From Candidatus Geocrenenecus huangii (lineage in GTDB: Archaea > Thermoproteota > Nitrososphaeria_A > Caldarchaeales > Wolframiiraptoraceae), in contig JALNKM010000003.1 of NCBI GenBank assembly GCA_023268155.1, forward strand, positions 1-64,000: 64,000 nt of DNA, given 5' to 3'. The notes under the pieces are model-generated. The model was not told the origin of the DNA and did no database searches. It saw only the letters and a program-made list of their open reading frames with translations. Shown piece by piece: positions 2,887 to 39,965 of the stretch. Position numbers and translations under genes: made by a program. Position 1 is the first letter of the stretch. Each line of letters starts with the position of its first letter.

Positions 2887-3369
2887 ATGATACATATGGG
2901 TAATAATGAATTTCTTCTCCTCAAGAAATTCCTAGACGACAACGGTGTAGTATATAGAGTATATGAGCATGAGCCAGTCTACACTTCTGAGCAGGCTGCA
3001 AGAGTCAGAAGAGTAGAGTTGAAGACTGGAGTTAAAGCCCTCATCATTAAAACGCCTGATGAGAGATTTATTCTAGGACTAGTAGCCGCTGATAGAAAAA
3101 TCGACCTAGCAAAACTTGCAAAGATAGTAGGAGTTAAGAAACTTAAGCTTGCAACACCCATAGAGGTCCTGGAGAAGACTGGCTGCGAGATTGGGTCAGT
3201 ACACCCCTTCGGAAACCTATATAATCTACAAACATATCTCGATAGATCTGTATTAGAAAATACTTGGGTCAACTTCAACGCAGGCTTACATACAGTTTCA
3301 ATACATATGAAGACTGAAGACTTGGTGAGGCTTGTTAAGCCAGTTATAGCTGATTTCTCAAAAGAATAG
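2887..3369 (+). CDS. YbaK/ProX-type aminoacyl-tRNA deacylase domain protein
   Basis: The 160-residue product matches the YbaK/EbsC fold, single-domain relatives of the prolyl-tRNA synthetase editing domain that hydrolyse mischarged aminoacyl-tRNAs in trans. Visible family features are the N-terminal VVYRVYEHEPVYTSEQAA, the lysine in TGVKALIIKT that usually contacts the tRNA end, and GCEIGSVHPFGN near the middle. Substrate specificity (Ala-, Cys- or Pro-tRNA) cannot be read from sequence. Two starts are possible, ATG 2887 and ATG 2896; I keep the longer. It stands alone between DUF72 and a convergent CDF transporter gene. Confidence 0.88.
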   Translation: MIHMGNNEFLLLKKFLDDNGVVYRVYEHEPVYTSEQAARVRRVELKTGVKALIIKTPDERFILGLVAADRKIDLAKLAKIVGVKKLKLATPIEVLEKTGCEIGSVHPFGNLYNLQTYLDRSVLENTWVNFNAGLHTVSIHMKTEDLVRLVKPVIADFSKE

Positions 3370-3423
3370 CTACTTATCTTGAGATTCTCCTCATTCCATT
3401 TTTCTCGCCTCTTTAATTGTGTT

Positions 3424-4332
3424 CTATGTTTTTGCCGTCTTACTCTGTTTGATCTTTCCAGCTTCACGTTTCTCGGATTCGGGTTCTACATGTATTATCA
3501 TGTTTACCTCTGGAAGACGGTGTCTTATCTCTTCTTCTAGATGATCTGCGATATCATGTGCTTCTTTTACGGTCATGTTATCATTGACTACGAGATGAAC
3601 CTCAGAGAATATCATGTTTCCGCTTCTGCGGGTTTTGAGGTCATGATACTCTGTGAAAAAATGCTTATGATCCTCAAGTATCTCACGTAGCTTCCTATCA
3701 GCCTCCTTAGACGCCGGATCAATTAAGTAGTTTGATGATTTTATTATTAATTCGAGCCCCATCTTCATTATGAATATGCTTACGCCTATCGCGAGGATTG
3801 AGTCTATGAAAATGTACCCGGTGAAGTATACGATCCCTAACCCTATCCAGATAGCCATCGAGGATAATACATCTGAAAATAAGTGTTTAGCATCTCCCTC
3901 GAAGGCGGGCGAACTCTTTATCTTAGATTCTTTTAGAAGCCTGTATGCTATTCCAGAATTTACTCCGCCCGCTATTATAGATGTAATAATTGCGACATCA
4001 AGTGAGTGAAGTTCAGTTGGATTAAAGATCCTATTGTAAGCAGTGTATAAGAGGAATATCGAGGCGATAACTATTAATATACCTTCTATCAATCTAGAAA
4101 CTTCTTCTATCTTCTGGTGACCGTATTGGTGACTTTCGTCAGGAGGTTTCACTGAAACATAAATTGTGAAGAACATTATACTTGAAGCAGCGATATTTAT
4201 AATTGATTCGAGAGCGTCAGATAGTAAAGCAACAGAATTCGAGATAAGGTATGCGATAAGTTTTATGCAAAAAACGATTACCCCGCCTGCGACGGTAACT
4301 GCCGCGACTGTAATCTTCTCCACTATTCTCAA
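3424..4332 (-). CDS. Cation diffusion facilitator (CDF) metal exporter
   Basis: This 302-residue membrane protein belongs to the CDF family, which exports Zn2+, Fe2+, Mn2+ or similar ions in exchange for protons. About six transmembrane segments fill residues 1-200. TM2 carries SDALES and TM5 carries HLFSDVLSS, the His-x3-Asp pair of the membrane metal site. The C-terminal cytoplasmic domain has TRRSGNMIFSEVHLVV and ends HVEPE, typical of the dimerising metal-sensing domain. A charged tail follows. The gene is monocistronic and convergent with the YbaK gene. Ion specificity is unknown. Confidence 0.93.
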   Translation of the reverse strand: MRIVEKITVAAVTVAGGVIVFCIKLIAYLISNSVALLSDALESIINIAASSIMFFTIYVSVKPPDESHQYGHQKIEEVSRLIEGILIVIASIFLLYTAYNRIFNPTELHSLDVAIITSIIAGGVNSGIAYRLLKESKIKSSPAFEGDAKHLFSDVLSSMAIWIGLGIVYFTGYIFIDSILAIGVSIFIMKMGLELIIKSSNYLIDPASKEADRKLREILEDHKHFFTEYHDLKTRRSGNMIFSEVHLVVNDNMTVKEAHDIADHLEEEIRHRLPEVNMIIHVEPESEKREAGKIKQSKTAKT

Positions 4333-8229: not shown

Positions 8230-10314
8230 CTAGTCTACTATCTCGTATATGTATACGTATGCGTAGCTGTAGTATGGCTCACTAGATTGATATACCAGCT
8301 TAAAATGATTGAATGTTGAGGGCTGGTAAATATGGCCTGTTACTCCAGCTTGGATCTGTTGTGGTTTATATGGGATCAGTCTTCCTAGCAGTGTATCTGT
8401 CCAGAATTTATCGGTGGGCCTATTGTTCTCGTCTAGATATTCGGATTCCGTAAAATTATATCCAACTTGATTAGCTATCCTTAGCATCCAGATCCATTTG
8501 GCTTCATCTCCGTATCCGAGTAGCATTGGTACATTTGTACCTCCTGTCGTGTAGACTGTATGAGTTATAAAGATCAAGACATGTGTTGCTTTGAGCTTCT
8601 TGAATACAGTATATGCTGTTTCCTCATCTGACATAAATGCATATGCTACTTCACCTATCTTAGTAGTATTCAACGTCGCGTTATCAACTATACTGGTATG
8701 ATTCCCTAGAACGGTTATCCAGTATCCATAATCCCACCACGATACAACCACAGCATCGGAGGGAAGATTATCTCTCATCCAGCTTAGAGCTTTAAGCCAG
8801 TCAGGGATACTTGACCTAGCTGGGAGACTAGACGATACAACTGTTGGAGGAACATAGGCTGTATCTATAGGAGATATTGAGTATCTAACACCGTAGGTGG
8901 ATGGAACAAGGCTAAACAATAGTAGACTACATACAAGGATAGGCGTAACAACATAGTATTCTATGCCTATCGTCTTCGCTTTCTCTCTTCTATGGTAAGT
9001 TATACTAATGTTTCGTGCTAGGCCTCTCAACATCTCCGATAAGCCAAAGGCAGCAACAATAACGACAGCAGGAGTAGCCAAGATCGTTAGTCTGGTCATA
9101 GTAGAGGCAAAATAAACAACGAAGACCGTTAATAAAATCATGAATATATCGACGTCCTCTCTCCTCTTGAATAGATAGTAGAAACCAGCTGGAACCAGGA
9201 ATAACTTGAATCCAGCATCAGAGAATATTATAGCCCATGTAGACACCTGGTTTTCTGCAACAGATATCACTATTGGTTGTATTGACCTTAAGGATGGGAT
9301 AATAGTGCTAAGAAACTTTAATCCTGGGAGCCCTAAGCTGCCTATCATGAGTAGTGAGCAGAAGGCGATTACGCCCCCGATCAATACGTAGTGTGGAAGA
9401 TTCTTAAGGATTCGAGAATTGAAACTCGACAATTCGAAAGATAATAGATAGATGAAGACCGCTATCGAGACGACTATCGTTACTTCTCTTAGGAAACCTA
9501 ATCCAAGCTTTGGAACCATTACAGCTATCAGGCCATATAGGAAAGCGGTAATAGAATATGATATGAGGAGCTTCCTCCTATATCTTCCGATGAAAGCTAG
9601 TATTCCAGTGAATATGGGTATGAAGGTTATAGGAAATCTAGAAGCCCCCCATGTTGCTGTAACGTATCCTAACGAGAGCCCCGCTATCACGGAGTAGATT
9701 ATTACTCCTTTCAATGTTCTATCCTTCTTTATCGCTAGAATGTAAGCCAGGAATCCAAGCATCATAAACGGTATACTTATGCTTTCATCATCAAACCATC
9801 CGAAGTGTGTTCTCTGAATACTCGCATTGCTTAAAGCTAATAAGAATGCGGATAAGAATCCTGCAGGTTTCCCTCCGACCTCTCTGCCGAGAAAGAATGC
9901 TATCAACGTAGTTACTATACCCATTAATGTTGGAAGGAATGCCGCCAGCTCTAATGGGTCAACTGTTAACCCGATACCGTTTAGTATGTGGTAAATGAAT
10001 GCAGCTAGAAAAGGTACCCCGGGGAAAGCTGTACGACCCACGTCTCTACCATCCGGATACCATGAATCGTAATCATGCCAATTAAAGAATTCTATAAATC
10101 CTGACCAGCCTCTGTCAACTACATATTTCATCTCTTTATACTGCATCCACGGGTCGAATTCGCTTAGATAGAGCCCCCATCTTAATGGAAGAACTCTGAC
10201 GAAGAATGCTAACGCAAGTATCATGAGTAAGATCATCACTTCGAGGAAGATTATCTTACCGCCGAATATTTTCGAGGCGAGGTTTACGAATTCGGTTTTC
10301 CTAATCCTTTCCAT
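8230..10314 (-). CDS. aglB: Oligosaccharyltransferase AglB (STT3)
   Basis: AglB moves a lipid-linked glycan onto Asn-X-Ser/Thr sequons of exported proteins at the outer membrane face. The 694-residue protein has an N-terminal polytopic region with SEFDPWMQYKEM (the first catalytic Asp motif) and GWFDDESISI, then a soluble C-terminal domain with the hallmark WWDYGYW and a DK-type motif DEAKWIWM. It lacks extra C-terminal beta domains, so it is one of the shorter archaeal forms. The next genes upstream encode surface proteins rich in sequons, which are likely substrates. Confidence 0.96.
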   Translation of the reverse strand: MERIRKTEFVNLASKIFGGKIIFLEVMILLMILALAFFVRVLPLRWGLYLSEFDPWMQYKEMKYVVDRGWSGFIEFFNWHDYDSWYPDGRDVGRTAFPGVPFLAAFIYHILNGIGLTVDPLELAAFLPTLMGIVTTLIAFFLGREVGGKPAGFLSAFLLALSNASIQRTHFGWFDDESISIPFMMLGFLAYILAIKKDRTLKGVIIYSVIAGLSLGYVTATWGASRFPITFIPIFTGILAFIGRYRRKLLISYSITAFLYGLIAVMVPKLGLGFLREVTIVVSIAVFIYLLSFELSSFNSRILKNLPHYVLIGGVIAFCSLLMIGSLGLPGLKFLSTIIPSLRSIQPIVISVAENQVSTWAIIFSDAGFKLFLVPAGFYYLFKRREDVDIFMILLTVFVVYFASTMTRLTILATPAVVIVAAFGLSEMLRGLARNISITYHRREKAKTIGIEYYVVTPILVCSLLLFSLVPSTYGVRYSISPIDTAYVPPTVVSSSLPARSSIPDWLKALSWMRDNLPSDAVVVSWWDYGYWITVLGNHTSIVDNATLNTTKIGEVAYAFMSDEETAYTVFKKLKATHVLIFITHTVYTTGGTNVPMLLGYGDEAKWIWMLRIANQVGYNFTESEYLDENNRPTDKFWTDTLLGRLIPYKPQQIQAGVTGHIYQPSTFNHFKLVYQSSEPYYSYAYVYIYEIVD

Positions 10315-10399
10315 TCTGGAACAATCTTAGCAGTGGTCTATTTAAATTTGTCACCAGGGATTCTTAGATGAAAAATTAAGTAGTGTCCATGCTCTCTAT

Positions 10400-10460
10400 A
10401 TGTGGATGATGAAGCCGAACATCATCTGATTAGATGATGATGGATCAACCGTCTGAAAAA
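10400..10460 (+). ncRNA. C/D-box guide sRNA (rRNA 2'-O-methylation)
   Basis: The stretch has complete C/D architecture: box C ATGATGA 10406-10412, a 13-nt guide 10413-10425, box D' CTGA 10426-10429, a 4-nt linker, box C' ATGATGA 10434-10440, a 12-nt guide 10441-10452, and box D CTGA 10453-10456. The D guide contains GGATCAACCG, complementary over ten bases to CGGUUGAUCC at the 5' end of archaeal 16S rRNA. The D+5 rule puts the methyl group on the first U of GGUUG. The D' guide has no perfect target that I recall. A TATA-like AAAAATTAA at about 10371-10379 is placed to start transcription near 10400. Exact ends are estimates. Confidence 0.85.
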
Positions 10461-10545: not shown

Positions 10546-10632
10546 TTATCTACTTTTTAATCTATTCTGCATGTAGAGTATTAGGAGAACTAGGCATAAT
10601 AATAATACTGCGAGAATGTAGGTTGTATTCAT
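10546..10632 (-). CDS. 28-residue single-pass membrane peptide
   Basis: The ATG at 10632-10630 overlaps the stop of the preceding minus-strand gene as ATGA. The 28-codon frame encodes a short polar start (MNTTY), about 16 hydrophobic residues and a basic end (QNRLKSR). The overlap and hydrophobic design suggest a real, translationally coupled peptide at the end of the surface-protein unit, perhaps an accessory of the anchored protein before it. There is no homology evidence. Confidence 0.45.
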   Translation of the reverse strand: MNTTYILAVLLLCLVLLILYMQNRLKSR

Positions 10633-11066
10633 TGTTCTTCTACCTGTCTCCTCTCATACTTACGAAGTCTTATGAGAATTATCAATAGTATTATGACTGT
10701 GGTAACCATTATCGCCAGCATAGTTGAGTAAGTCTCGAATGGAAGATAGGTGTAAACGGTTAATGTTATTGTCTCGGTGATCGTCAACGAGATAGTTTTC
10801 GCAACTGTTACACTCTGGGTTTTAAATATCGATGAGAACTCAATCGAAGTCTGAATTACAGTAACGTATTCTCTAATGGTCTTGGTATACGTCTCGGTAA
10901 TCGGTACTCCGGTATACGTGTATATCGTTTCAGTGACCGTAGCCGTCTCTTCTAGGCCACTAGTGCGCTGAGTACCTACACCCACAAAATTTACACCCAC
11001 CGTTAAACAAATCAATAATAATATGGGGGCAATCTTTGAAACATTAACTTTCAATATCTCCATCAC
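10629..11066 (-). CDS. Membrane-anchored threonine-rich surface protein
   Basis: This 145-residue protein has an N-terminal hydrophobic signal segment (residues 12-30), an extracellular part built of Thr/Val/Ile-rich stretches such as TVTETIYTYTG and TISLTITETITLTV, a C-terminal transmembrane helix and a basic cytoplasmic tail (RLRKYERR). This is the design of an archaeal cell-surface anchor or stalk subunit. The start lies inside the preceding 789-residue gene (23-nt overlap), so the two are co-translated and may form a complex. I recognise no family. Confidence 0.75.
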   Translation of the reverse strand: MMEILKVNVSKIAPILLLICLTVGVNFVGVGTQRTSGLEETATVTETIYTYTGVPITETYTKTIREYVTVIQTSIEFSSIFKTQSVTVAKTISLTITETITLTVYTYLPFETYSTMLAIMVTTVIILLIILIRLRKYERRQVEEQ

Positions 11067-39872: not shown

Positions 39873-39965
39873 GGGGCCGTGGTCTAGCATGGCTATGACT
39901 CCAGCCTGGGGAACTCCAAACGTACAGTACGCTGGAAATCCTGGGTTCAAATCCCAGCGGCCCCA
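39873..39965 (+). tRNA. tRNA-Pro (GGG) with an 18-nt intron
   Basis: Acceptor arms GGGGCCG (39873-39879) and CGGCCCC (39958-39964) pair, with discriminator A 39965. D stem GTC/GAC, T arm CTGGG-TTCAAAT-CCCAG. The anticodon stem CCAGC (39901-39905) pairs with GCTGG (39931-39935), and loop CTGGGG gives anticodon GGG at 39908-39910, proline. The extra 39912-39929 is an intron at the canonical 37/38 position, assuming C39930 is base 38. Splicing endonuclease and RtcB (gene at 47461-48918) would process it. CCA is not encoded. Confidence 0.93.

What the first reader, a model, noticed from the sequence alone, without database searches (positions are those of the whole stretch)
10400..10460. C/D-box sRNA guiding methylation at the very 5' end of 16S rRNA
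Boxes C, D', C' and D are perfect, with 13- and 12-nt guides and a 4-nt linker. The D guide pairs over 10 bases with CGGUUGAUCC, the conserved 16S 5' leader strand of helix 1/the central pseudoknot, and predicts a 2'-O-methyl-U at the first U of GGUUG. The D' guide (13 nt) comes within one bulge of 23S GAUGUCGGCU but has no perfect target that I know.
Basis: partly seen in the sequence, partly recalled or inferred. Interest (0 to 1): 0.65.

Follow-up and report, generated by a model that had tools for sequence, protein, structure and literature searches.

The report
Archaeal guide RNA for 16S 5' end
A tiny RNA gene in a heat-loving archaeon carries a guide, kept across distantly related archaea, that pairs with the very start of the small-ribosome RNA and probably marks or helps fold it, at the same place where the eukaryotic U3 RNA binds.

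Summary
Window 10406-10456 is a textbook archaeal C/D box sRNA: perfect C, D', C' and D boxes, 13- and 12-nt guides, 4-nt linker. It is the only such element in 64 kb, with none expected by chance. The D guide forms 10 contiguous Watson-Crick pairs with CGGUUGAUCC at the 5' end of this genome's own 16S rRNA, in the N+5 register that predicts 2'-O-methylation of the first U of GGUUG (E. coli U13 by hand alignment). The gene keeps its place beside aglB/STT3 in two congeners, where the D guide is conserved (10 of 12) and the D' guide is not (6 of 13). Other archaea carry the same guide and register: 29 of 41 genomes of the Thermococcus order match, control 0 of 41. In many of them the second guide targets h25, h27, h19 or h18 of 16S, around the central pseudoknot. 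A new member of a known kind; U3-like chaperoning is possible but unproven.

The parts
10406..10412 (+). box C (ATGATGA)
   Evidence: read directly; part of the only strict C/D pattern in the window
10413..10425 (+). D' guide (13 nt, AGCCGAACATCAT); no supported target
   Evidence: no significant target in own 16S, 23S or 42 tRNA loci; 6 of 13 columns identical in two congeners
10426..10429 (+). box D' (CTGA)
   Evidence: 4 of 4 columns conserved in congeners
10430..10433 (+). 4-nt D'-C' linker (TTAG), K-loop size
10434..10440 (+). box C' (ATGATGA)
   Evidence: 7 of 7 columns conserved in congeners
10441..10452 (+). D guide (12 nt, TGGATCAACCGT), antisense to the 16S rRNA 5' end; nt 10448 (A) pairs with the predicted 2'-O-methyl-U
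   Evidence: 10 contiguous Watson-Crick pairs with own 16S; 10 of 12 columns conserved in congeners; same guide and register in other archaea
10453..10456 (+). box D (CTGA)
   Evidence: 4 of 4 columns conserved in congeners
10371..10382 (+). A/T-rich stretch about 25 nt upstream of the RNA, possible TATA/BRE of the sRNA (inferred only)
   Evidence: partly conserved in the three-species spacer alignment; not tested as a promoter

Best explanation
An archaeal C/D box sRNA of about 55 nt. L7Ae, Nop5 and fibrillarin would assemble on its C/D and C'/D' motifs. Its D guide pairs with nucleotides of the nascent 16S rRNA that will form the 5' strand of helix 1 and the 5' strand of the central pseudoknot, and directs 2'-O-methylation of the first U of GGUUG (E. 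coli U13 equivalent). While paired it must also keep that strand out of helix 1 and the pseudoknot, so a timing or chaperone effect follows physically. In this genus the D' guide has drifted and has no recognisable target, so the RNA works mainly as a single guide. Shown: anatomy, own-rRNA complementarity and register, synteny, selective conservation of the D guide, guide conservation across archaea, presence of fibrillarin and Nop genes. Inferred: expression, RNP assembly, methylation, folding effect.
For: Anatomy and chance estimate. Own-16S match in register. Synteny beside STT3/aglB in G001 and G004, with box and D-guide conservation against divergent flanks: boxes 6/7, 4/4, 7/7, 4/4, D guide 10/12, D' guide 6/13, upstream 27/71, downstream 17/103. 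Register in a pattern search that left the spacing free: 20 of 21 matches put exactly 2 nt between GATCAACC and CTGA, of 9 spacings allowed. 21 of 22 archaeal loci against 4 of 57 bacterial loci have the 2-nt C-box spacing. 29 of 41 Thermococcus-order genomes match, control 0 of 41; 31 of 200 Thermoproteota genomes match, control 5 of 200. Fibrillarin and Nop present.
Against: No expression or methylation data. The 10-bp match alone is only moderately improbable (3 of 100 shuffled guides reach its energy). Most Thermoproteota genomes gave no match with the exact patterns (378 of 398; 169 of 200), including the congener G003, so the guide is not universal or is missed when boxes vary. A 3.2 A P. 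abyssi 30S structure lists no ribose-methylated U near the 16S 5' end (passages of PMC7005279); 2'-O-methyls are hard to see at that resolution, and that species was not shown here to carry the guide.
Confidence: 0.87

Rival explanations
1. The RNA's main job is to chaperone 16S folding (U3-like): it holds the 16S 5' end until the central pseudoknot strands are available, and methylation is secondary or absent.
For: The site overlaps the 18S 5' segment (nt 9-16) that U3 pairs with in the yeast 90S, and U3 also pairs with helix 27 (PMC5354517 section 11). Partner guides in related archaeal sRNAs hit h27 in 11 of 70 collected sRNAs and h25 in 13 of 70, plus 5 at h19 and 6 near h18. The 5'-end + h25 guide pair occurs in Wolframiiraptoraceae and in Thermococcus-order genomes with the two guides in opposite order.
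Against: The N+5 register and Watson-Crick pairing at the target U are kept, as expected for methylation. The window RNA itself has no core-directed partner guide. h3, h18 and h27 are C/D hotspots anyway (PMC4644070), so the coupling may reflect that background; no matched background set could be built.
Confidence: 0.2
2. The D' guide is also functional, directed at 23S GAUGUCGGCU in the peptidyl transferase loop with one bulge, or at an RNA not tested.
For: 10 pairs with one bulged A at -14.6 kcal/mol.
Against: 24 of 100 shuffled guides did as well; a bulge near the modified position is expected to block methylation (established knowledge); the guide is not conserved in syntenic orthologues; no target in own 16S, 23S or 42 tRNA loci.
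Confidence: 0.1
3. A decayed or untranscribed sRNA gene, or a chance pattern.
For: One guide has no target and expression is untested.
Against: All four boxes and the D guide are conserved in syntenic orthologues while flanks diverge; the strict pattern is not expected by chance.
Confidence: 0.03

Closest known systems
[quoted passage not shown] sets of seven species in PMC4644070)
   Same: Box sequences, 12-13 nt guides, short D'-C' linker, N+5 register, rRNA target.
   Different: The target is the 16S 5' terminus; the main-text passages I read do not name this site. The supplementary target list of Dennis 2015 and Lui 2018 could not be opened, so the site may already be listed there.
Eukaryotic U3 snoRNA (C/D class)
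   Same: [quoted passage not shown] U3 also pairs with helix 27 (PMC5354517), as do partner guides of several related archaeal sRNAs, though on the other arm.
   Different: U3 is much longer, uses B/C and C'/D motifs with Rrp9, pairs also with the 5' ETS and is not known to methylate (PMC8162545 passages); the window RNA is a minimal symmetric C/D sRNA with a register suited to methylation and no h27 guide.
N. equitans sR15/sR17 and other long-range dual guides (PMC4644070 Table 3)
   Same: One sRNA bridging distant 16S strands around the core, proposed as chaperones.
   Different: They bridge h28 and h30 strands; relatives of this RNA bridge the 5' end with h25, h27, h19 or h18.
U3-like cis sequences (Dennis 1997, cited in PMC3608112; not read, content recalled)
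   Same: Proposed to take part in forming the 16S 5'-end pseudoknot.
   Different: Here the complement is in a separate small RNA; the own 16S leader (-250 to -4) has no run of 7 or more pairs with the 5' end.

Membership tests
Archaeal C/D box sRNA | Boxes C, D', C', D in order | tested here: met
Archaeal C/D box sRNA | Guide spacers of about 12 nt and short internal linker | tested here: met
   13, 12 and 4 nt; the norm is recalled
Archaeal C/D box sRNA | Guide complementary to own rRNA with a Watson-Crick pair at N+5 (rule stated in PMC4644070) | tested here: met
   D guide met; D' guide not met
Archaeal C/D box sRNA | Host encodes fibrillarin and Nop5 | tested here: met
   PF01269 E 4.2e-97, PF01798 E 4.9e-71
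Archaeal C/D box sRNA | Host encodes L7Ae | not tested
   no genome search left; universal in archaea (recalled; also said of L7Ae in the PMC5539422 abstract start)
Archaeal C/D box sRNA | Expressed, RNP-bound, directs 2'-O-methylation | not testable with these tools
   needs RNA-seq, RIP and RiboMeth-seq
[quoted passage not shown]
   U3 site as described in PMC5354517
U3 snoRNA | Pairs with helix 27 | tested here: not met
   window D' guide has no h27 match; 11 of 70 collected relatives do have one, on the other arm
U3 snoRNA | Long 5' domain, B/C motif, Rrp9 | tested here: not met
   the element is 51 nt from C to D with a standard C'/D' motif; Rrp9 was not searched
U3 snoRNA | Pairs with 5' ETS; needed for pre-rRNA cleavage | not testable with these tools
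   function needs an experiment; significance of ETS pairing was not examined

The most novel reading that the evidence does not exclude
This RNA belongs to a widespread set of archaeal C/D sRNAs that are the functional counterpart of U3: one guide clamps the 16S 5' end in a fixed register and the other, in many lineages, clamps h25, h27 or h19 across the central pseudoknot, so the RNP gates pseudoknot formation and methylates as it leaves. U3 would descend from such an RNA by keeping the 5'-end and h27 contacts and losing catalysis.
Probability: 0.18. Interest if true: 0.85.

Novelty: new member of a known kind. Interest (0 to 1): 0.55.

Why it matters
Reviews state that U3 and other sRNPs acting in archaeal rRNA folding independently of modification are not known (passage of PMC8339473), that U3-like sRNAs appear absent (passage of PMC3608112), and that an archaeal RNA functioning as U3 'is awaited' after an early report proved an error (passages of PMC3879963). 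A conserved guide at the U3 site, often coupled to guides for other core strands, gives concrete RNAs to delete in a genetically tractable order (Thermococcus) and so makes that old question testable. At minimum it predicts one ribose methylation conserved across distant archaea at the start of 16S.

Tried and rejected
D' guide targets: scanned against own 16S and 23S loci, 42 tRNA loci and with bulges allowed; nothing significant. 5S, SRP and RNase P RNAs were not scanned.

Cis complement in the own 16S leader: none of 7 or more contiguous pairs within -250 to -4; 24 leaders were scanned, some others have weak ones.

Partner class CAGTCCAGGA (17 of 70 sRNAs, Thermococcus-type genomes): no significant target in register in the own 16S of 6 of these genomes or in the 23S region of one (G417). 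It stays an orphan and counts against the idea that the partner always hits the core.

Background of core targeting: I looked for other C/D sRNAs in the fetched archaeal loci. 31 distinct strict patterns were found in 757,200 bases (many loci overlap), 25 with the 5'-end guide and 6 without; 58 bacterial loci of 423,449 bases held none. Six is too few for a background, so no enrichment is claimed.

MAFFT misplaced the first 20 nt of archaeal 16S against E. coli, so U13 rests on a hand alignment of helix 1 with recalled structure. Other E. coli numbers (821, 903, 565, 571, 510) are in the 16S of strain UC4224, 1545 nt, about 1 above K-12 (recalled offset).

Rows dropped: I dropped, as lacking C/D anatomy by eye, L188, L189, L192, L193, L198, L199, L209, L210 and L247, and did not fetch G161's match, L093 (G256). 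Loci that looked like records of genomes already held were left out of the 70, judged by identical letters, and so was L029, which has the 5-nt spacing. In one search G227 and G198 fell under 'other' although by eye they carry the h27-type guide.

Full report
What is there. Window 10406-10456 holds box C, a 13-nt guide, box D', a 4-nt linker, box C', a 12-nt guide and box D, all boxes perfect. It lies in the spacer between aglB/STT3 (8230-10314, minus strand; Pfam STT3 E 1.7e-42) and a 145-aa minus-strand ORF (10629-11066). A strict C/D pattern occurs once in 64 kb and never in 40 simulated sequences of the same dinucleotide make-up (first-order Markov, mean 0.0; relaxed pattern mean 0.05). 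As a further check of the grammar, 58 bacterial loci of 423,449 bases, 57 of them selected for holding TGATGA...GATCAACCGNCTGA, contain no full C/D pattern.

Target. The genome's single detected 16S gene (contig C7) starts ACTCCGGTTGATCCTGCCGG. The D guide pairs with CGGUUGAUCC over 10 contiguous Watson-Crick pairs; the fifth guide base from box D pairs with the first U of GGUUG. Duplex energy -18.2 kcal/mol; 3 of 100 shuffled guides did as well somewhere in own 16S+23S. In E. coli terms the pairing covers the 5' strand of helix 1 and the 17-19 strand of the central pseudoknot, with the methyl on U13 (hand alignment; numbering recalled). The own 16S leader between -250 and -4 has no run of 7 or more pairs with the 5' end, so within that stretch no cis element replaces the guide.

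Selection. In congeners G001 and G004 the spacer between STT3 and the 145-aa homologue contains the orthologous sRNA. In the three-way alignment, identical columns are: box C 6/7, D' guide 6/13, D' 4/4, linker 1/4, C' 7/7, D guide 10/12, D 4/4, upstream flank 27/71, downstream flank 17/103. The central 9 nt GGATCAACC are invariant. The 16S rRNAs of window genome and G001 are 98.3% identical in shared columns (1469 of 1495), so the D' guide has moved fast while the D guide has not. The congener G002 still has a D' guide with the GCATC core (TAACCGCATCGT), as have six other genomes of the family; G002's copy is not beside STT3 in the stretch held.

Distribution. A scan of the 84,980-species collection for TGATGA-(0-5)-GATCAACCGNCTGA gave 79 loci, 22 of them archaeal by title; 21 of 22 archaeal but 4 of 57 bacterial loci have the 2-nt spacing (my count from its table). 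Two archaeal loci (L056, L071) are from one MAG. In 398 Thermoproteota genomes a pattern that left the box D spacing free (0-8 nt) hit 20 genomes with 21 matches; 20 of 21 matches have exactly 2 nt before CTGA; the reversed control hit 1 of 398. With box C dropped, 31 of 200 Thermoproteota genomes match (control 5 of 200), 22 of the 30 matches that were fetched showing C/D anatomy by eye, and 29 of 41 genomes of the Thermococcus order match (control 0 of 41). The sets overlap. Exact patterns miss variants, so these are lower bounds; they also mean that most Thermoproteota genomes sampled gave no match, the congener G003 among them. The window genome is in the same family as genomes whose sRNA records are titled Candidatus Wolframiiraptor (identity of handles inferred from identical match positions and letters), so it is probably a member of Wolframiiraptoraceae.

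Partner guides. I collected 70 sRNAs with this guide; 68 have the 2-nt C-box spacing. The other guide falls into classes: 13 carry GCATC(A/G) and match 16S ACGAUGCGGG or AGGAUGCGGG, predicted site U821 (UC4224 numbering) at the start of h25; 11 carry AGCCTT(G/A) and match GCAAGGCUGAAA, site G903 in h27; 2 and 3 match the h19 area at 565 and 571; 6 match 510 near h18; 17 carry CAGTCCAGGA with no target found; 18 are other, the window RNA included. Helix names for these numbers are recalled. Single-guide p-values from 200 shuffles range from 0.005 to 0.35 for the h25, h27, h19 and h18 classes, so individual calls are weak and the weight rests on recurrence. 50 guides were tested, 24 of them on a near relative's 16S because their own was not found. 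The 5'-end + h25 pair occurs in Wolframiiraptoraceae with the 5'-end guide at box D and in six Thermococcus-order genomes with it at box D'; this could be independent pairing or a permutation of the gene.

Mechanism. The best-supported reading is a methylation guide: the register is fixed, the target U is Watson-Crick paired, and fibrillarin and Nop are encoded. Because the paired strand is needed for helix 1 and the central pseudoknot, binding must delay both. U3 in the yeast 90S pairs with 18S nt 9-16 and with the 5' arm of helix 27 (PMC5354517, section 11 read), which is the same neighbourhood as the 5'-end + h27 sRNAs here, though the archaeal h27 guide takes the loop and the other arm. 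The resemblance is functional only; the window RNA fails U3's structural criteria and has no h27 guide.

Literature. Read: section 4 (parts 1 and 2 of 3) and section 11 of PMC4644070, part 1 of section 4 and section 7 of PMC7994747, section 11 of PMC5354517, and passages of PMC8339473, PMC3608112, PMC7005279, PMC7758197, PMC7089733, PMC8162545, PMC11698992 and PMC3879963. None of these passages names a C/D sRNA for the 16S 5' terminus. The searches behind that statement were made; supplementary target tables were not open to me, Schoemaker 2006, Dennis 1997 and Lui 2018 were not held, and Gaspin 2000 was not looked up, so priority is not established.

Verdict. A real, ordinary-looking C/D sRNA with a striking and widely conserved target. 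Its own second guide is orphan. The chaperone or U3-counterpart idea is worth an experiment but is not shown.

Noticed in passing
L001 (own 16S, reverse strand), 16S position 141: A 98-nt insert relative to congener G001, intron-like.
   Followed up: partly
L002 about 3297-3712: An insert of about 415 nt in the own 23S gene, low in G+C, probably an intron (seen); 16S and 23S lie on different contigs (C7, C19).
   Followed up: no
window 39873-39965 (+): A tRNA found by Rfam but not by ARAGORN, 93 nt, probably with an intron.
   Followed up: no
L224, L232, L240 and 14 similar Thermococcus-type loci: 17 sRNAs pair the 16S 5'-end guide with a conserved second guide CAGTCCAGGA that has no target found in 16S or in one 23S region.
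   Followed up: partly
L217 1528-1809; also L015, L103, L211, L212: In several Thermoproteota genomes the 5'-end sRNA sits just upstream of, or abuts, a small gene starting MAYTWEPKW (93 aa in L217), so the sRNA may lie in its leader.
   Followed up: no
L002 about 1417-1455: A hairpin-like GATGCTGATGAGCCCTGAAGCTCAAGATGAAGCATC just before the 23S gene, K-turn- or BHB-like (seen).
   Followed up: no
L202 (minus strand), about 1401: A second C/D sRNA beside the h25/5'-end sRNA of G008, with guides matching the h27 5' arm area and a site near 983 of 16S.
   Followed up: no
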